Assembly (NCBI RefSeq): GCF_008728835.1
Contig: NZ_CP042582.1
Span: forward strand, 434,001 to 498,000
Direction: 5' to 3'
DNA: 64,000 nucleotides
Source: Hypericibacter adhaerens
GTDB lineage: Bacteria; Pseudomonadota; Alphaproteobacteria; Dongiales; Dongiaceae
Part shown: positions 57,445 through 63,097 of the stretch, piece by piece
Layout: the number at the start of each line of letters is the position of its first letter
Numbering within the stretch: the stretch's first letter is position 1
Program-made: the position numbers and the translations under genes
Notes under the pieces: model-generated
Told to the model about the DNA's origin: nothing
The model's input: only the letters and a program-made list of their open reading frames with translations
The model's database searches: none

Positions 57445-58662
57445 ATGTCGACTCGAGCGGCGCGCGACGCCGCGCTCAAAGCCGTACCCTCTGCCGAACC
57501 GCGCAGCGTCACCATCCTGGGTTCCACCGGCTCCGTCGGCCGCAACACGGTCGACCTGATCCGGCGCGACCCCACCGCCTATCGCATCGAAGCCCTGACC
57601 GGCAGCGACAATGTCGCGCTCCTGGCCGAGCAGGCGCGCCTGCTCAAGCCGAAGCTGGCGGTGGTCGCCAATCCCGCGCGGTACGGCGAGCTGAAGGAGG
57701 CCCTGGCCGGCACGGGCACGGAACTGGCCGCCGGGCCTGAGGCCGTGACCGAAGCCGCCCAGCGCCCCGCCAAATGGGTGATGGCCTCGATCGTGGGCGC
57801 CGCCGGCCTGAAGCCGACGCTGGCGGCCGTGCGTCGCGGCGCCGTGATCGGGCTCGCCAACAAGGAGACGCTGGTCTGCGCCGGCGCCCTGATGATGGGC
57901 GAGGTCAAGCGCCACAAGGCGACGCTGCTTCCCGTCGATTCCGAGCACAGCGCCATCTTCCAGGTGTTCGAGACCGAGCGGCGCGAGGCGGTGGACCGCA
58001 TCATCCTGACGGCCTCGGGCGGACCCTTCCGCACCGCGAGCCGCGAGGTGATGGAGAAGGCGACCCCGGCCCAGGCGGTGAAGCATCCGAACTGGAGCAT
58101 GGGCGCCAAGATCTCGATCGATTCGGCGACCATGATGAACAAGGGCCTCGAGATCATCGAGGCCCAGCATCTCTTCAACATGCCCGAGGACCGCATCGAG
58201 GTGCTGGTCCACCCGCAGTCGGTGATCCATTCGATGGTCGCCTATGTGGACGGCTCGGTGCTGGCGCAGCTCGGCACGCCCGACATGCGCACGCCGATCG
58301 CGGTGGCGCTGGCCTGGCCCAAGCGCATGGGTTGCCCCGCCGAGCGGCTCGATTTCGCCAAGGTTTCGACCCTGACCTTCGAGGCGCCGGACGAGGTCCG
58401 CTTCCCGGCCCTGCGGCTGGCGCGCGAGGCGCTGCGCACCGGGGGCGGCGCACCCGTGGTGCTCAATGCCGCCAACGAGGTCGCCGTCCAGGCCTTCCTC
58501 GACGGGCGCATCGGCTTCCTCGACATCGCGGCGATCGTCGAAACCTGTCTCGACCGGGTCAATGCGGGCGGTGCCGTCGATCTCGAGGAGGTGGCGATGG
58601 CCGACCAGGCCTCGCGCGCCGAAGCCCGCCGCCAGGTGGAGAGCCGCGCGGCGGCGCGCTAG
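57445..58662 (+). CDS. dxr: 1-deoxy-D-xylulose 5-phosphate reductoisomerase
   Basis: 405 aa. NADPH-binding [14 protein letters not shown] near the N-terminus and catalytic regions [31 protein letters not shown] and TASGGPFRT, then [15 protein letters not shown], are all conserved. It converts DXP to MEP in isoprenoid synthesis. It feeds precursors to the squalene/hopanoid genes that follow. TAGGAG lies 12 bases before ATG 57445. The gap to the next gene is 14 bp. Confidence 0.95.
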
Positions 58663-58676
58663 GGCCTCGGGATCCG

Positions 58677-59867
58677 GTGTCCTTGCTGTTCGGGATCGCC
58701 GCGCTCAGCCTCGCGGTCTGGATCTATCTCCTTCTGTTCCATGGCGGCTTCTGGCGCGCCCGCGAACGTCTGCCGCAGCAGCCCCCGGTTCCGGCGCGAT
58801 GGCCTTCCGTGGTCGCCGTGCTGCCAGCCCGCGACGAGGCGGAGACGATCCAGGCGGTGCTGGAGCATCTGGTCGCGCAGGACTATCCCGGCCCCCTCTC
58901 GATCCTGCTCGTGGACGACAACAGCAGCGACGGCACCGGCACGATCGCGCAGGAGGTGGCGCGCCGGGCGCCTTCGGACCGTCCCGTCATCGTGGTCGAT
59001 GGCGCTCCGCTGCCGGAAGGCTGGACCGGCAAGCTCTGGGCCCTGTCGCAGGGGGTCGCGCAAGGGCTCACCCTCGAGCCGCGGCCCGCGTTCTTCCTCT
59101 TCACCGACGCCGATATCGGCCATGGACCGCGGCAGCTGCGCCGGCTGGTGGCGCAGGCCGAAGCGTCCGGGTCCGATCTGGTCTCGCTGATGGCGCGCTT
59201 GCGCTGCGCCAGCTTCTGGGAGCGGCTGCTGATCCCGGCCTTCGTCTATTTCTTCCAGAAGCTCTATCCCTTCGCCTGGGCCAACGATCCGCGCCGCCGG
59301 ACCGCGGCGGCGGCGGGCGGTTGCGTCTTGATCCGCGAGTCCGCGCTGGCGCGGATCGGCGGCATCGCCGCGATCCGCGGCAAGCTGATCGACGATTGCT
59401 CGCTCGCGCGCGCTGTCAAGGCCGCCGGCGGGCGCACCTGGCTCGGCCTCGCCGACGATACCGTCAGCCTGCGCGGCTACACGGAGCTGGGGCCGATCTG
59501 GAGCATGGTGGCGCGCTCTGCCTACACGCAGCTCCTGCATTCACCGTTGCTTCTGGTCGGCACCGTCATCGGCATGGCCCTGCTCTATCTGGCGCCGCCG
59601 CTGCTGGCGCTGACCTGGCCCTTGCATCGCGATGCGCCGGCGGGGCTTGCCGGCGCGCTCGCCTGGCTGCTCATGGCCGCTTCCTACGGGCCGATGCTGC
59701 GCTACTACGGGCGCTCGCCGGTCGAGGGGCTGCTGCTGCCGGTCGCGGGTTTCCTCTACACGGCGATGACGATCGATTCGGCGCGGCTCTATTACGGACG
59801 CGGCGGCAATCGCTGGAAGGGCCGCGATTATGGCCGCGCCGGCACGGCCAACCGTTCCGCCTCGTGA
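58677..59867 (+). CDS. hpnB: Hopene-associated glycosyltransferase HpnB
   Basis: 396 aa. A first hydrophobic segment (LFGIAALSLAVWIYLLLFHGG) precedes a GT-A domain with VVAVLPARDEAETIQAVLEH, the metal-binding region LVDDNSSDGTGTIA and TDADIGHGPRQL. Two or three further membrane helices lie near the C-terminus. HpnB is encoded with hopanoid genes; its sugar acceptor is not settled. Start is GTG 58677, the first codon of the conserved N-terminus; the open frame further up is antisense-like and overlaps dxr. Confidence 0.85.
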   Translation: MSLLFGIAALSLAVWIYLLLFHGGFWRARERLPQQPPVPARWPSVVAVLPARDEAETIQAVLEHLVAQDYPGPLSILLVDDNSSDGTGTIAQEVARRAPSDRPVIVVDGAPLPEGWTGKLWALSQGVAQGLTLEPRPAFFLFTDADIGHGPRQLRRLVAQAEASGSDLVSLMARLRCASFWERLLIPAFVYFFQKLYPFAWANDPRRRTAAAAGGCVLIRESALARIGGIAAIRGKLIDDCSLARAVKAAGGRTWLGLADDTVSLRGYTELGPIWSMVARSAYTQLLHSPLLLVGTVIGMALLYLAPPLLALTWPLHRDAPAGLAGALAWLLMAASYGPMLRYYGRSPVEGLLLPVAGFLYTAMTIDSARLYYGRGGNRWKGRDYGRAGTANRSAS

Positions 59868-59910: not shown

Positions 59911-60792
59911 ATGAAAAGCGGCGGCATGACGAACGCGGTCGAGACCCCGTCGGGCAAGGGATCCGGCGATGAGAATTTTCCGGTGGGGTCGTTCCTGCTG
60001 CCGGCGCAGTTGCGCCCGCATGTGGCGCGCTACTACGCCTTCGCGCGCACCATCGACGACATTGCCGACAATCCCGATCTGGCGCCGGAGGAGAAGATCC
60101 GCCGGCTCGACGGTTTCGCCCGCGCGCTCGAGACCGGCGAGGGCGGCCCGGACTATGCCAAGGCCCTCAGCCTTCGCGCGAGCATGGCCGAGACCGGCGT
60201 TCCCTTCCGCCATGGCACCGACCTCACGATCGCCTTCAAGCAGGACGCGGTGAAGCTGCGCTATCGCGACTGGGACGATCTCATGGGCTATTGCAACAAC
60301 TCGGCCGCCCCGGTCGGCCGCTATCTGGTCGACCTTCATGGCGAGGGGACGCGCTGCTATCCGGCCTCGGACGCGCTCTGCAACGCGCTCCAGGTGCTCA
60401 ATCACCTGCAGGACTGCCAGAAGGATTATCGCGCGCTCGACCGCGTCTATCTGCCCGAACCCTGGCTGATCGAGGCGGGCGGCGCCATCGCCGATCTCGA
60501 GGGCAGCCGCTCGACGCCGGCCCTGCGGCGCGTGATCGATCGCTGCCTCGAAGGCACCGCCGAGCTGGTGCGCCAGGCGCGGCCGCTGCCCGACCTCTTC
60601 CGCAGCCGGCGCTTCGCGATGGAAGCGGCCTTCATCTGGCGCATCGCCGACCGGCTGCTCCGGGAACTGCAGCGGCGCGATCCCGTCGCCGAGCGGGTGC
60701 AACTGACCAAGGGACAGTTCGCGGCCGCCGGGCTCTGGGGCGTGGCGCTGGTCCTGCGCACCCCGCGCCCGCGCTCCTTTCAGGGTGGGTAA
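59911..60792 (+). CDS. hpnC: Squalene synthase HpnC (hydroxysqualene synthase)
   Basis: 293 aa. The isoprenoid synthase helix motifs are in YYAFARTIDDIADNPDLA and LNHLQDCQKDYRALDR, with WDDLMGYCNNSAAPVGRYLV between. HpnC acts with HpnD and HpnE to turn farnesyl diphosphate into squalene via presqualene diphosphate and hydroxysqualene. In most hopanoid clusters hpnD follows directly. Here a 1.4-kb Fic/HTH module lies between them. The stop converges with the fic gene 26 bp away. Confidence 0.92.
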   Translation: MKSGGMTNAVETPSGKGSGDENFPVGSFLLPAQLRPHVARYYAFARTIDDIADNPDLAPEEKIRRLDGFARALETGEGGPDYAKALSLRASMAETGVPFRHGTDLTIAFKQDAVKLRYRDWDDLMGYCNNSAAPVGRYLVDLHGEGTRCYPASDALCNALQVLNHLQDCQKDYRALDRVYLPEPWLIEAGGAIADLEGSRSTPALRRVIDRCLEGTAELVRQARPLPDLFRSRRFAMEAAFIWRIADRLLRELQRRDPVAERVQLTKGQFAAAGLWGVALVLRTPRPRSFQGG

Positions 60793-60818
60793 GGCCGCTT
60801 TGAGGCCTCGGCCAGTGC

Positions 60819-61409
60819 CTAGAGATCGGCGCGAGGGCCGATGAACGCGATCAGAGGGCCGATATCGCCCCGATCCGCAGCTCGCAGCGCGGCGATGTAC
60901 GCCGTTCTTCGCTCGCCTATCTGCCCGAGATCACGCCCGCCAGCCCAATCGATCGGCGGGGCGCCATGGATGCGGGTGAGCATCGCGTCCGCCATGATGC
61001 GGGCGTGCCTGCCATTGCCGTTGGGAAACGGGTGAATCTGAACCAGCCGGTGATGGAACCTGACCGCCGCCTCCGAGGCGGGATAGGTTTCATGAGCGGC
61101 CCAGTATCGCGCGTCATCCATCAGGGTGCGGAGCTCCACCCTGATATGGATCGGGTCGATGCCGATGTTCTTGCCGGTCCGTCGGAACGAGCCCGCCCAA
61201 TCCCAGACTTCGCCGAACAATCTTTCATGAAGTGCTGCGGCAAAGGCGTCCGTGAGCACCTCGCCACGATAGCGTGCGAGCCAACGCATGCCGGATTCGA
61301 TATTGGCCTGCTCGAGCTCGTCGAGTTCCTCGCGCGTGGTGACATGTTTGAACTTCAAGCCACCGAGCTCGTTCGGGTCGAGCGGCGTCGCTCCGTCCGG
61401 GTACTCCAT
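60819..61409 (-). CDS. Fic-domain protein, mobile mystery protein B family
   Basis: 196 aa. The N-terminus ATPLDPNELGGLKFKHVTTREELDELEQAN and the middle VWDWAGSFRRTGKNIGIDPI fit the mobile mystery B family. The Fic motif is HPFPNGNGRHAR (126-137): the His and the GNGR loop are intact, but the acidic residue usual at the sixth position (D/E) is Asn130. Fic proteins transfer AMP or related groups to proteins. Asn in place of the acid may change activity or metal use. It is paired with the HTH gene immediately upstream (8 bp). Confidence 0.88.
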   Translation of the reverse strand: MEYPDGATPLDPNELGGLKFKHVTTREELDELEQANIESGMRWLARYRGEVLTDAFAAALHERLFGEVWDWAGSFRRTGKNIGIDPIHIRVELRTLMDDARYWAAHETYPASEAAVRFHHRLVQIHPFPNGNGRHARIMADAMLTRIHGAPPIDWAGGRDLGQIGERRTAYIAALRAADRGDIGPLIAFIGPRADL

Positions 61410-61417
61410 GGCATCTG

Positions 61418-61879
61418 TTACTTGTCGTTCCAGAGATCGGGGGGCATCTCCCGTGCAATCTCGCGGGTGAGGCGATCGACTTCCTGTGCGATTTTGTCAT
61501 TCGGTAGGGCTTGGCCTTCCAGGGCCATGTGAGTGCTGGCCATGCCGACAAGGGCCAGGGCCTTTTTCCGAGCCTGAGCGGTAATGACGTCGTCGATGCG
61601 CTTTTCGGGGACGATGGCATAGACGAAACGGCATCCCATGGCTTCGGCGGCGGCCTTCATGGACTTCAGGGTCGCACCGCCGCCCAGTTCGGCATGCTCG
61701 GCCTGCGCGATGCGGGCTCGCGTGACGCCGATCTTTCTCGCGAGCTGAGCCCCGGACATCCCGAGCGCCTTGCGCACCGTCCTTAGCCAGCCTTCGAGAG
61801 GCACCTGCAGATCGGCGTGACGGGCGGCGTTATCGACGATGCGCCGATATTGCTGCCGAGCGATGGCCTTGGCTGTCAT
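61418..61879 (-). CDS. XRE-type HTH protein, mobile mystery protein A family
   Basis: 153 aa. An N-terminal helical region (TAKAIARQQYRRIVD) and a helix-turn-helix at about 38-75 (ALGMSGAQLARKIGVTRARI) precede a conserved C-terminal half (MGCRFVYAIVPEKRIDDVIT, ALEGQALPNDKIAQEVDRLT) typical of mobile mystery protein A. It is likely the regulator and possible antitoxin of the Fic protein. An AT-rich region with three spaced dyads lies directly upstream and probably contains its operators. Confidence 0.88.
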   Translation of the reverse strand: MTAKAIARQQYRRIVDNAARHADLQVPLEGWLRTVRKALGMSGAQLARKIGVTRARIAQAEHAELGGGATLKSMKAAAEAMGCRFVYAIVPEKRIDDVITAQARKKALALVGMASTHMALEGQALPNDKIAQEVDRLTREIAREMPPDLWNDK

Positions 61880-61907
61880 GTTGCCCTACCGATTGGAGCT
61901 TGCGGTC

Positions 61908-62000
61908 TTGTCTATTTATAAGCATACACAATTATACAATATGTCAATTTATAAGTTGACATAATGACTCTAATTGTCAACTTTAAGATTAACATATTGA
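61908..62000 (-). promoter_or_regulatory. Triple operator array upstream of the HTH/Fic pair
   Basis: Three imperfect copies begin at 61908, 61941 and 61974, exactly 33 bp apart, with cores TTGTCTATTTATAAG, ATGTCAATTTATAAG and TTGTCAACTTTAAG. Each sits in a 20-bp dyad of TGTCAA-N8-TTGACA type (61909-61928, 61942-61961, 61975-61994). The middle copy is perfect and extends to 8-bp arms (61940-61963). The 33-bp spacing equals about three helical turns. The arms also supply TTGACA-like -35 boxes on the minus strand. Probable autoregulatory sites of the HTH protein (inference). Confidence 0.7.
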
Positions 62001-62006
62001 TGCAGG

Positions 62007-62230
62007 GGCGACGTTCTGTACGCCACAACCTGTCTATCGAGCGCGGCTCCACCAAGTGTGGTGCTTGGGGCACTCCGGCGCCGGCACCATTCGAAAGCTT
62101 TCTGGGAATTCCCTGGCGGCCGGTGCCGCCTTTGCAGGTCATTGAAATGACGAAAGCAATTGAGTTTCGTGACAAGGATGCGCTGGGCTATTCTCCCGCC
62201 CGGCAAAGGTGAAAGCGGGTTTCCCTCCTG
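62007..62230. other. Gap between operator array and hpnD
   Basis: 224 bp of intermediate base composition with no supported gene. Short ORFs on both strands (61964-62212 plus, 61912-62175 minus) run across the operator array and lack ribosome-binding sites. The region probably keeps the right junction of the inserted module and the hpnD promoter; no terminal repeat or target duplication was recognised. Confidence 0.4.
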
Positions 62231-63097
62231 ATGGCGGATCAGGCGACAGAGACATGGCGGACGGATGACGCCGACCGCGCCGAGATGGCGGAACGGGTCG
62301 AGCGGTCCGGCACGTCCTTCTACTGGTCGATGCGGCTGCTGCCGCGCGCCAAGCGCGAGGCCATGTTCGCGATCTATGCCTTCTGCCGCGCGGTGGACGA
62401 CATCGCCGACGAGCCGGCGCCGCTCGAGAGCAAGCAGGCGGGCCTCGCCGAATGGCGCGCCGAGATCGAGCGCCTCTATGCCGGCCGACCGACCCACGCG
62501 GTGGCGCGCGCGCTGGTCGATCCGGTCCGTCGCTTCGCGCTCCGCCGCGAGGATTTCCTGGCCGTGATCGACGGCTGCGAGATGGACGCGCATGGGCCGG
62601 TGGTGGCGCCCGACTGGTCCACCTTGCGGCTCTATTGCGCCCGGGTCGCCGGCGCCGTGGGCCATCTCTCGGTGCATGTGTTCGGGGCGCCCGACCGCCA
62701 GGGCTACAAGCTGGCGGCGGCGCTGGGCGAGGCGGTGCAGCTCACCAACCTCTTGCGCGACGTGGCCGAGGATGCGCGCGATGGAAGGCTCTATCTGCCG
62801 CGCGAGCTGCTGCAGCGCCATAGCGTGCCGCCGCTGCCGGCCTCGGCGCTGGCCCATCCGGCGCTGCCGCTGGTCTGTCTCGATGTGGCGAAGGTCGCGG
62901 AGACCCGCTTCGCCGAGGCGGCCGAAGCCTTGCGCGTGCTGCCGCATCGCGCCATGACGCCCGCGCGTATCATCGAGGGCATCTATCATCGCCTGCTGGC
63001 CCGGCTCACGGCCGAGGGTTTCCGCCGTCTCGAGCCCAAGATGCGTCTCTCCAAGGGCGAGAAGCTGCGCATCGCGCTGGCGCGGCTGGTGTGGTGA
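62231..63097 (+). CDS. hpnD: Presqualene diphosphate synthase HpnD
   Basis: 288 aa isoprenoid synthase fold. Motifs are SFYWSMRLLPRAKREAMFAI, the first Asp-rich helix CRAVDDIADEP, and the second LTNLLRDVAEDARDGRLYLP. HpnD condenses two farnesyl diphosphates to presqualene diphosphate. ATG 62231 has no strong ribosome-binding site. The stop overlaps the hpnE GTG (GTGA), so the two are coupled. Confidence 0.92.
   Translation: MADQATETWRTDDADRAEMAERVERSGTSFYWSMRLLPRAKREAMFAIYAFCRAVDDIADEPAPLESKQAGLAEWRAEIERLYAGRPTHAVARALVDPVRRFALRREDFLAVIDGCEMDAHGPVVAPDWSTLRLYCARVAGAVGHLSVHVFGAPDRQGYKLAAALGEAVQLTNLLRDVAEDARDGRLYLPRELLQRHSVPPLPASALAHPALPLVCLDVAKVAETRFAEAAEALRVLPHRAMTPARIIEGIYHRLLARLTAEGFRRLEPKMRLSKGEKLRIALARLVW

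What the first reader, a model, noticed from the sequence alone, without database searches (positions are those of the whole stretch)
60793..62230. Fic/HTH module inserted between hpnC and hpnD of the squalene pathway
hpnC and hpnD are normally adjacent, but here a minus-strand mobile mystery B (Fic) and A (HTH) pair with an AT-rich control region splits them. The lower GC of the control region suggests acquisition. The pair may be a toxin-antitoxin-like addiction or defence module that stabilises or regulates an essential-membrane-lipid locus. hpnD would need a promoter inside or after the insertion.
Basis: partly seen in the sequence, partly recalled or inferred. Interest (0 to 1): 0.72.

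Follow-up and report, generated by a model that had tools for sequence, protein, structure and literature searches.

The report
Mobile Fic toxin-antitoxin-like pair splitting hpnC-hpnD
A small travelling gene pair, probably an enzyme and the DNA-binding protein that restrains it, entered a membrane-lipid gene cluster of this bacterium long ago and has been kept there; comparing its relatives suggests how this widespread but little-studied 'mobile mystery' pair may work.

Summary
In detail: between hpnC (59911-60792) and hpnD (62231-63097) lies a minus-strand mob_myst_A/B pair with an AT-rich upstream region.

hpnC and hpnD are tightly packed in 18 of 20 other relatives showing both, two unresolved. 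The module is at this spot in the one other species of the genus held, under purifying selection. Its Fic protein groups with Bradyrhizobium/Mesorhizobium copies, not with that of the neighbouring genus: horizontal acquisition before the two species split.

The AT-rich stretch is best read as an operator array, three 20-bp palindromes 33 bp apart, a phasing seen before mob_myst_A in other genomes.

MmyA has a conserved M-x-L-E-x-Q segment (Glu 110 of 110), loosely resembling the inhibitory helix of class I Fic antitoxins. MmyB lacks such a motif and has Asn where AMPylating Fic enzymes have Asp/Glu (109 of 109).

Best reading: an autoregulated Fic toxin-antitoxin-like module with a DNA-binding antitoxin; no functional tie to hopanoids was found. 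Activity, toxicity and the complex are unshown; the complex fold was inconclusive. A modification-removing role is the bold alternative.

The parts
59911..60792 (+). hpnC, squalene synthase HpnC; left neighbour, convergent with mmyB
   Evidence: NCBIfam TIGR03464 264.4 bits over cut-off 250.45
60819..61409 (-). mmyB: mobile mystery protein B, Fic-domain protein (196 aa)
   Evidence: TIGR02613 267.7 bits; Pfam Fic PF02661 48.2 bits; AlphaFold2 pLDDT 90.7, closest folds VbhT/FicT/FICD
60999..61034 (-). Fic active-site motif HPFPNGNGRHAR (residues 126-137); Asn130 in the place of the usual Asp/Glu
   Evidence: read from the sequence; N at this column in 109 of 109 aligned MmyB
61418..61879 (-). 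mmyA: mobile mystery protein A, XRE-type HTH protein (153 aa), first gene of the pair
   Evidence: TIGR02612 166.9 bits; HTH_3 31.9 bits, residues 32-86
61511..61531 (-). MmyA residues 117-123, HMALEGQ: proposed inhibitory segment with invariant Met118, Glu121 and Gln123
   Evidence: 110 of 110 MmyA share M118, E121 and Q123; resemblance to [S/T]xxxE[G/N] is relaxed, strict form at this place in 9 of 110
61909..61928 (.). operator-like palindrome, mmyA-proximal, weakest copy (4 mismatches to GTCAA-N8-TTGAC)
   Evidence: 33 bp from the next copy
61942..61961 (.). operator-like palindrome, perfect GTCAA-N8-TTGAC copy
   Evidence: the only mismatch-free match to TGTCAANNTATAANTTGACA in the genome
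61975..61994 (.). operator-like palindrome, one mismatch to GTCAA-N8-TTGAC, 33 bp further out
62141..62200 (+). candidate own promoter region of hpnD (contains TATTCT)
   Evidence: 80% identical between the two species of the genus, against 43% for the spacer 61995-62140; no consensus sigma-70 promoter found
62231..63097 (+). hpnD, presqualene diphosphate synthase; right neighbour, divergent from mmyA
   Evidence: TIGR03465 331.2 bits over cut-off 278.6

Best explanation
A horizontally acquired, autoregulated toxin-antitoxin-like module. MmyA binds three phased palindromes upstream of its own gene through its HTH domain and represses the mmyA-mmyB operon. Its C-terminal half places an invariant glutamate (E121) in the MmyB active site, probably against the last Arg of the Fic motif (R137), and keeps MmyB off. 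When MmyA is lost or degraded under stress, repression and inhibition fall together and MmyB acts on an unknown target. The module entered between hpnC and hpnD in an ancestor of the two species; hpnD then runs from its own promoter. Shown: gene identity, pairing, phylogeny, purifying selection, phased palindromes, invariant residues. Inferred: DNA binding, inhibition, salt bridge, toxicity, target, hpnD promoter.
For: Pairing: MmyA on the same strand within 1.5 kb of MmyB in 95 of 95 loci (domain distance at most 118 bases) and in 17 of 17 further loci found by HMM alone. In the 192-genome sample 3 of 18 genomes with MmyA lack an MmyB over cut-off, and in the 398-genome sample one genome has two full-length MmyA without MmyB beside them; MmyB without MmyA was not seen. 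Operator: 17 of 95 upstream regions hold a perfect GTCAA-N8-TTGAC site, 0 in 50 rounds of shuffles; a test that ignores the sequence of the arms finds palindrome pairs 33 bp apart 14 times against 0.7 in dinucleotide shuffles, and 66 bp apart 9 against 0.3 (73 of 75 representatives). Antitoxin segment: M118, E121, Q123 and W150 invariant in 110 of 110. One orphan MmyA (G129) lacks this stretch but keeps the C-terminal Trp, and three proteins that share only the HTH domain and continue as another domain lack both the segment and MmyB. Class I logic: the glutamate of the antitoxin helix pairs with the last Fic-motif Arg (PMC5033356, passages); that Arg is 109 of 109 here and no conserved inhibitory motif lies in MmyB itself (3 of 109, at three places). 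Selection: dN/dS about 0.12 (NG86) for both genes. Acquisition: 66-76% identity to the six Bradyrhizobium/Mesorhizobium MmyB of its clade, while HpnD is 47-49% to the three Bradyrhizobium genomes tested; tree 100/99. A Mesorhizobium loti mobile mystery B gene is in the top 50 of heat-shock induction, M-value 4.02 (PMC3989490, passages).
Against: The strict [S/T]xxxE[G/N] motif is met at E121 in only 9 of 110 MmyA, not in the window's, and it is met by chance at E29 in 12 of 110, so the strict motif itself carries no weight; the case rests on the invariant residues. The fold of a read-through MmyA-MmyB chain gave pTM 0.55, so the docking is not supported, and the structural alignment covered the Fic part. 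The C-terminal 62 residues of MmyA match no known antitoxin among PDB sequences or Pfam. MmyB has Asn in place of the acidic residue; in Fic-1 the Ala mutant at that position lost AMPylation and toxicity (PMC13327609, passages). 47 of 95 upstream regions have no site within 2 mismatches of the GTCAA consensus. Four of five full-length orphan MmyA keep the segment without MmyB. No toxicity or binding was tested.
Confidence: 0.58

Rival explanations
1. MmyA-MmyB is a modification-removing enzyme (for instance a de-AMPylase). With Asn in the place of the acidic residue MmyB cannot load AMP, but with the glutamate that MmyA supplies it can remove it; the pair would be an antidote to other Fic toxins or a signalling eraser.
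For: The acidic residue is Asn in 109 of 109 MmyB. In Fic-1 the acidic-position mutant E139A lost AMPylation and toxicity, whereas of the Fic-1 mutants tested only H135A lost de-AMPylation in complex with AntF, and the antitoxin glutamate E28 is needed for it (PMC13327609, passages and Discussion). In MmyB the His is 108 of 109, and MmyA Glu121 is 110 of 110. The own genome has three other weaker Fic matches whose motifs carry Asp.
Against: 7 of 15 MmyB genomes of the relatives sample list no second match to the MmyB profile at E<=0.001, so a second Fic protein does not look obligatory (the profile may miss distant ones). The analogy is from Ala, not Asn, at that position. Metal binding by Asn is untested.
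Confidence: 0.17
2. An anti-phage (abortive infection) module in which phage interference with MmyA or its operon releases MmyB.
For: MmyB matches PADLOC candidate family PDC-S04 (E 5e-19) and SoFic (7.5e-12). Sofic is reported as anti-phage (PMC12249575, start of abstract in a listing only). TIGR02613 is listed with Doc among Tn7-like transposon cargo in a defence table (PMC8649781, passage).
Against: PDC-S04 is a candidate family, and the PADLOC output gives no curated cut-off. No other defence gene was sought beside the module.
Confidence: 0.12
3. A host-adopted regulator of the hopanoid branch, for instance one that senses farnesyl diphosphate, the HpnD substrate, through the Fic pocket.
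For: FICD is the closest solved relative by sequence (E 1.1e-16), the FICD-FPP entry 9yz5 is among the best folds, and FICD binds FPP in the active site (PMC12974487, abstract and sections 7 and 9). Site and pair are kept in both species of the genus.
Against: FPP binding to FICD uses D367 to hold Mg, and this is Asn in MmyB; FPP did not affect the two bacterial Fido proteins tested there (sections 7 and 9). The pair occurs on plasmids and in contigs of many other bacteria. The conserved block before hpnD lies outside the operator array.
Confidence: 0.05
4. MmyB is catalytically dead and serves only as a co-repressor of MmyA; the module is a selfish repressor pair.
For: The acidic residue is lost; Khater and Mohanty suggest that Asn variants in the Doc clade may be inactive in AMPylation (PMC4454073, section 6).
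Against: His126 (108 of 109), N132 and G133 (109), R134 (108) and R137 (109) are kept and dN/dS is about 0.12, which suits an enzyme better than a scaffold.
Confidence: 0.08

Closest known systems
[quoted passage not shown]
   Same: both over cut-off; A upstream of B; plasmid relatives
   Different: nothing in kind; this copy sits inside a hopanoid gene cluster. The families are named without function (model type hypoth_equivalog)
class I Fic toxin-antitoxin pairs VbhTA, EcFicTA, Fic-1-AntF
   Same: Fic fold (Z 17.4-18.0); antitoxin gene upstream (for EcFicA: PMC5033356); invariant Glu in the partner and invariant last Arg in the Fic motif
   Different: acidic residue of the Fic motif is Asn; inhibitory motif relaxed; partner carries an XRE DNA-binding domain and an operator-like array, unlike the small antitoxins described in the passages seen
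FICD (human Fic, class II)
   Same: closest solved relative by sequence, similarity runs past the Fic core to the C-terminus; first by Foldseek, Z up to 17.0
   Different: FICD carries its own inhibitory glutamate (E234) and Asp367 (PMC12974487 and PMC13327609); MmyB has no conserved inhibitory motif and an Asn
XRE-type antitoxins and repressors (HigA, HipB, P22 C2 kinds)
   Same: HTH domain of MmyA matches such chains weakly among solved structures (best of these HigA3, E 2.7e-4)
   Different: partner is a Fic protein, and the C-terminal half of MmyA is not covered by those matches
PADLOC candidate PDC-S04
   Same: Fic domain similarity, E 5e-19
   Different: only a candidate; membership not decided

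Membership tests
mobile mystery pair (TIGR02612/TIGR02613) | both proteins over the curated cut-offs | tested here: met
   166.9 vs 122.6 bits and 267.7 vs 124.4 bits
mobile mystery pair (TIGR02612/TIGR02613) | A directly upstream of B on the same strand | tested here: met
   61418-61879 then 60819-61409 on the minus strand, 8 bases between
class I FicTA (VbhTA/EcFicTA kind) | Fic fold in the toxin | tested here: met
   Pfam Fic 48.2 bits; model pLDDT 90.7, Z 18.0 to VbhT over 175 residues, rmsd 2.7
class I FicTA (VbhTA/EcFicTA kind) | active-site motif HxFx[D/E]GNGRxxR | tested here: not met
   HPFPNGNGRHAR; Asn at the [D/E] place here and in 109 of 109 aligned MmyB
class I FicTA (VbhTA/EcFicTA kind) | separate antitoxin with [S/T]xxxE[G/N] | tested here: not met
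   strict form absent at E121 in the window's MmyA (HMALEG) and present there in 9 of 110, against 12 of 110 at E29; a relaxed form with invariant Glu121 in 110 of 110
class I FicTA (VbhTA/EcFicTA kind) | no inhibitory motif inside the Fic protein | tested here: met
   3 of 109 MmyB have any such match, at three different places
class I FicTA (VbhTA/EcFicTA kind) | antitoxin helix docks into the Fic active site | tested here: inconclusive
   read-through chain of L067 folded with pTM 0.55; alignment covers the Fic part only
class I FicTA (VbhTA/EcFicTA kind) | AMPylates a target and is toxic without the antitoxin | not testable with these tools
   needs bench work
type II toxin-antitoxin system | two-gene operon, toxin not found without antitoxin | tested here: met
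   112 of 112 MmyB loci have MmyA beside them; by a start-codon rule the genes overlap in 79 of 95 and have a gap in 16
type II toxin-antitoxin system | antitoxin autorepresses through an operator at its promoter | tested here: inconclusive
   HTH domain and phased palindromes present; binding not tested
type II toxin-antitoxin system | spreads horizontally | tested here: met
   250 plasmid records with a match, 237 over at least 80% of the protein; tree and identity contrast
type II toxin-antitoxin system | toxicity relieved by the antitoxin | not testable with these tools
   needs bench work
anti-phage candidate PDC-S04 | match to the PADLOC models | tested here: inconclusive
   E 5e-19, 66.8 bits, no curated cut-off given

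The most novel reading that the evidence does not exclude
MmyA-MmyB is a widespread Fic variant that cannot add AMP (Asn for the metal-binding acid) but, with a catalytic glutamate lent by its DNA-binding partner, removes nucleotides from proteins; binding of the partner to a 33-bp-phased operator array couples that erasing activity to its own transcription.
Probability: 0.14. Interest if true: 0.82.

Novelty: new variant of a known kind. Interest (0 to 1): 0.5.

Why it matters
In the paper searches made here (open-access library only, some listings capped) no functional study of the pair was seen, only mentions in genome or expression listings. The results give three sharp, cheap tests: does MmyA bind the 33-bp-phased array, is Glu121 the inhibitory or catalytic residue, and what does a Fic enzyme with an invariant Asn do. 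They also give an example, bracketed by a sister species and other relatives, of a mobile pair entering a tightly packed lipid gene cluster with no recombinase gene in the insert.

Tried and rejected
Farnesyl-diphosphate sensing: attractive because FICD is the nearest solved relative and binds FPP, but the Mg-holding Asp is Asn in MmyB and FPP did not affect two bacterial Fido proteins; kept only as a weak rival.

MmyA regulon: the operator pattern with up to 3 mismatches gives two sites of the array and two other 3-mismatch sites in the genome, against 3 matches for the reversed control pattern; no sign of a regulon.

hpnA displaced by the module: the epimerase between hpnC and hpnD in G002 is a below-cut-off HpnA relative (344.1 bits, cut-off 367.65); G000 and G001 carry an HpnA over cut-off elsewhere. 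Whether the two interruptions are related could not be decided.

Insertion mechanism: direct and inverted repeats at the two edges are short or weak and no target-site duplication was recognised.

Complex structure: MAFFT misplaced MmyA tails in two tries (alignments A3 and A4); row sets were then screened locally until the Glu, Trp and Fic columns aligned, and the row set was chosen on that criterion. The fold of that set (A5) had pTM 0.55 and is not used as support. Known folds absent from the VIA list mean nothing.

C-terminal half of MmyA: no match in PDB sequences or Pfam that would name it (best hits weak and below cut-off).

Promoters and terminators: none by consensus scan in 60700-62300.

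Natural MmyA-MmyB fusions: 0 of 95.

dN/dS against the neighbours: by NG86 and LWL85 the two module genes (0.12-0.13) lie a little below hpnC, hpnD and hpnE (0.15-0.19), but by YN00 the order turns (module about 0.10 and 0.14; hpnD and hpnE about 0.04-0.05; hpnC failed). Purifying selection holds by each method; a comparison with the neighbours does not (ratios worked out from its dN and dS).

Sampling limits: the genome-contig scan used a peptide pattern containing NGN, so its 80 loci are biased for Asn; the HMM-only sets are not (14 of 14; 15 of 15 readable of 17). Of 95 MmyB, 93 are different. MmyA counts drop L117 and L164 as too short. The GTCAA consensus was read by eye from the first 15 loci and then counted in 95 that include them; the sequence-blind test was made for that reason. 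It dropped 2 of 75 representatives for lack of upstream sequence, and besides 32-33 and 65-66 bp it also shows some excess at other distances (for instance 20 bp, 7 against 0.9). The shuffles keep single-base make-up only; those keep dinucleotides. With two mismatches allowed, 48 of 95 loci have a site against 10.0 in shuffles. Only one other species of the genus was listed.
Full report
What is there. The window gap 60793-62230 between hpnC and hpnD holds two minus-strand genes and an AT-rich upstream region. NCBIfam names them mobile mystery protein B (a Fic protein, 60819-61409) and A (an HTH protein, 61418-61879), both far over cut-off, and confirms hpnC and hpnD on either side; hpnB (58659-59867) and the start of hpnE (63091 onward, cut by the window end and so below its cut-off) flank them. 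MmyA comes first, with 8 bases between the genes. mmyB and hpnC converge, mmyA and hpnD diverge.

Is it an insertion? Of the 30 HpnD loci examined, 18 have hpnC and hpnD -46 to +31 bp apart, 2 gave no clear boundary, 8 show no hpnC in the stretch held (the sister species among them), and the remaining two are the window (+1438) and G002 (+1131). The sister species G001, the only other one of the genus listed, has the same module at the same place. The nearest other genus, G002, has a different gene there, an epimerase below the HpnA cut-off, and keeps its MmyB on another contig. The window's MmyB groups with its sister and with six Bradyrhizobium and Mesorhizobium copies in a strongly supported clade (100/99); its exact place within that clade is weaker (90/77), and the G002 copy falls elsewhere. 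Identity to those six copies is 66-76%, while HpnD is 47-49% identical to that of the three Bradyrhizobium genomes tested and 65% to that of G002. The module was therefore most likely acquired horizontally before the two species split. Both genes are under purifying selection, dN/dS about 0.12 by NG86; whether this is stricter than in hpnC, hpnD and hpnE depends on the method. GC3 is still low, about 0.75 against 0.87-0.89.

The AT-rich region. It contains TGTCAATTTATAAGTTGACA at 61942-61961, a perfect GTCAA-N8-TTGAC palindrome, with a one-mismatch copy 33 bp further out (61975-61994) and a weak copy (4 mismatches) 33 bp nearer to mmyA (61909-61928). The consensus was read from the first 15 loci. 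Across 95 loci, 17 upstream regions hold a perfect site and 28 a site with at most one mismatch, against 0 and 0.76 in shuffles; 47 of 95 have none within two mismatches. Successive sites lie 33 bp (17 times) or 32 bp (7 times) apart. A test that asks only for palindromes of any sequence, on 73 of 75 representatives, finds pairs 33 bp apart 14 times against 0.7 in dinucleotide shuffles and 66 bp apart 9 against 0.3; some other distances are also in excess, less so. So a phased operator array looks like a common trait of mob_myst_A promoters, while the half-site sequence drifts. The own genome shows no excess of the pattern elsewhere. The array is 69% conserved between the two species, the spacer 61995-62140 only 43%, and the block 62141-62200 before hpnD 80%, which fits separate control of mmyA and hpnD; no consensus sigma-70 promoter was found.

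The two proteins. MmyB folds confidently as a Fic domain (pLDDT 90.7). By sequence its nearest solved relative is FICD (E 1.1e-16), which is also first by Foldseek; by VIA-align, VbhT, EcFicT and Fic-1 (Z 17.4-18.0) stand level with or just ahead of FICD (up to 17.0). Its motif is HPFPNGNGRHAR. The place that is Asp or Glu in AMPylating Fic proteins is Asn in 109 of 109 aligned MmyB. One set of those loci was found with a pattern containing Asn, but the HMM-only sets agree (14 of 14; 15 of 15 readable of 17). Khater and Mohanty describe the Asp as the metal ligand and list an Asn group only within the Doc clade, with a different motif end (PMC4454073, section 6). The motif His (108 of 109), both Arg (108 and 109 of 109) and the Gly-Asn-Gly core (109) are kept.

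MmyA has an N-terminal HTH domain and a C-terminal half without known relatives. In that half Met118, Glu121, Gln123 and Trp150 are invariant in 110 of 110 sequences, and Leu120 is Leu in 106. The segment H/T/S-M-x-L-E-x-Q closes a long predicted helix (helix 96-121 of the L067 chain). Class I Fic antitoxins carry [S/T]xxxE[G/N] in a helix whose Glu meets the last Arg of the Fic motif (PMC5033356, passages). The strict motif is met at Glu121 in only 9 of 110 MmyA, and at an unrelated place, E29, in 12; so the strict motif carries no weight here, and the argument rests on the invariant Glu in the obligate partner of a Fic protein. This is a resemblance, not membership. MmyB has no conserved motif of this sort itself.

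Natural experiments. All 112 MmyB loci examined have MmyA beside them: 95 of 95 and 17 of 17. The reverse is not true. In the 192-genome sample 18 genomes have MmyA and 15 have MmyB over cut-off, and in the 398-genome sample one genome has two full-length MmyA without MmyB. Of these five orphans four keep the segment; one of the four (G004) is followed by what looks to the eye like a toxin remnant, without an HMM match. The fifth (G129) lacks the M-x-L-E-x-Q stretch and keeps the terminal Trp. Three further proteins share only the HTH domain and continue as another domain, nucleotidyltransferase-like in the two run against Pfam; they have neither the segment nor MmyB. This asymmetry and the segment's absence in those proteins fit an antitoxin whose C-terminal half serves MmyB; the four orphans that keep it show that it can be present without a partner.

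How it most likely works. MmyA represses its own operon through the array and holds MmyB through the Glu121 segment. Loss of MmyA under stress would raise transcription and free MmyB at once. A Mesorhizobium loti mobile mystery B gene is among the 50 most heat-induced genes (M-value 4.02; PMC3989490, passages), which fits. What freed MmyB does is open. In Fic-1 the acidic residue is needed for AMPylation and toxicity, while de-AMPylation with AntF needs the His and the antitoxin Glu but not the acidic residue (PMC13327609, passages and Discussion). MmyB looks like a natural version of that mutant, so a modification-removing complex is a serious alternative. Against it, 7 of 15 MmyB genomes list no second match to the MmyB profile.

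What was not shown. The attempt to fold MmyA and MmyB as one read-through chain of a relative gave pTM 0.55, and structural comparison covered only the Fic part; docking is unproven. No binding, toxicity or chemistry could be tested.

Known and new. The pair is a known annotated family without function. In the searches made here it appears only in mentions: Ferrovum genomes, rickettsial plasmids, Tn7-like cargo and the heat-shock table (passages; a second Ferrovum paper seen only in the listing). Makarova and colleagues counted xre genes next to Fic/Doc genes 22 times (PMC2701414, passages). New here, as far as those searches reach, are the phased operators, the invariant MmyA segment, the orphan and fusion pattern, and the bracketed entry into a hopanoid cluster.

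Noticed in passing
L007 about 355-1375 (G002): A plus-strand epimerase, a below-cut-off HpnA relative, sits between hpnC and hpnD in the neighbouring genus: a second interruption of the same otherwise tight junction.
   Followed up: partly
L209, L210, L212 (G230, G318, G400): Proteins that join the mob_myst_A-type HTH domain to another domain (nucleotidyltransferase-like by Pfam in L209 and L210), without MmyB: a possible further module.
   Followed up: partly
L189 (G129): An orphan MmyA in which the conserved M-x-L-E-x-Q stretch is missing while the rest of the C-terminus, with the terminal Trp, is kept.
   Followed up: partly
L006 about 65-86 (G001): The sister species has a GC-rich inverted repeat between the convergent hpnC and mmyB ends (seen by eye, not folded); the window lacks it and the scan shows no terminator there.
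   Followed up: no
L170 4525-5579 (CP048491.1): On an Agrobacterium pAt plasmid the pair lies about 0.5 kb from traG, with the relaxase gene traA about 3 kb on; in Ruegeria (L171) it follows mobC and a relaxase gene.
   Followed up: no
window 57445-58662: A 405-aa ORF that I would call dxr (1-deoxy-D-xylulose-5-phosphate reductoisomerase; recalled, not searched) lies just before hpnB, so an isoprenoid precursor gene may adjoin the hopanoid cluster.
   Followed up: no
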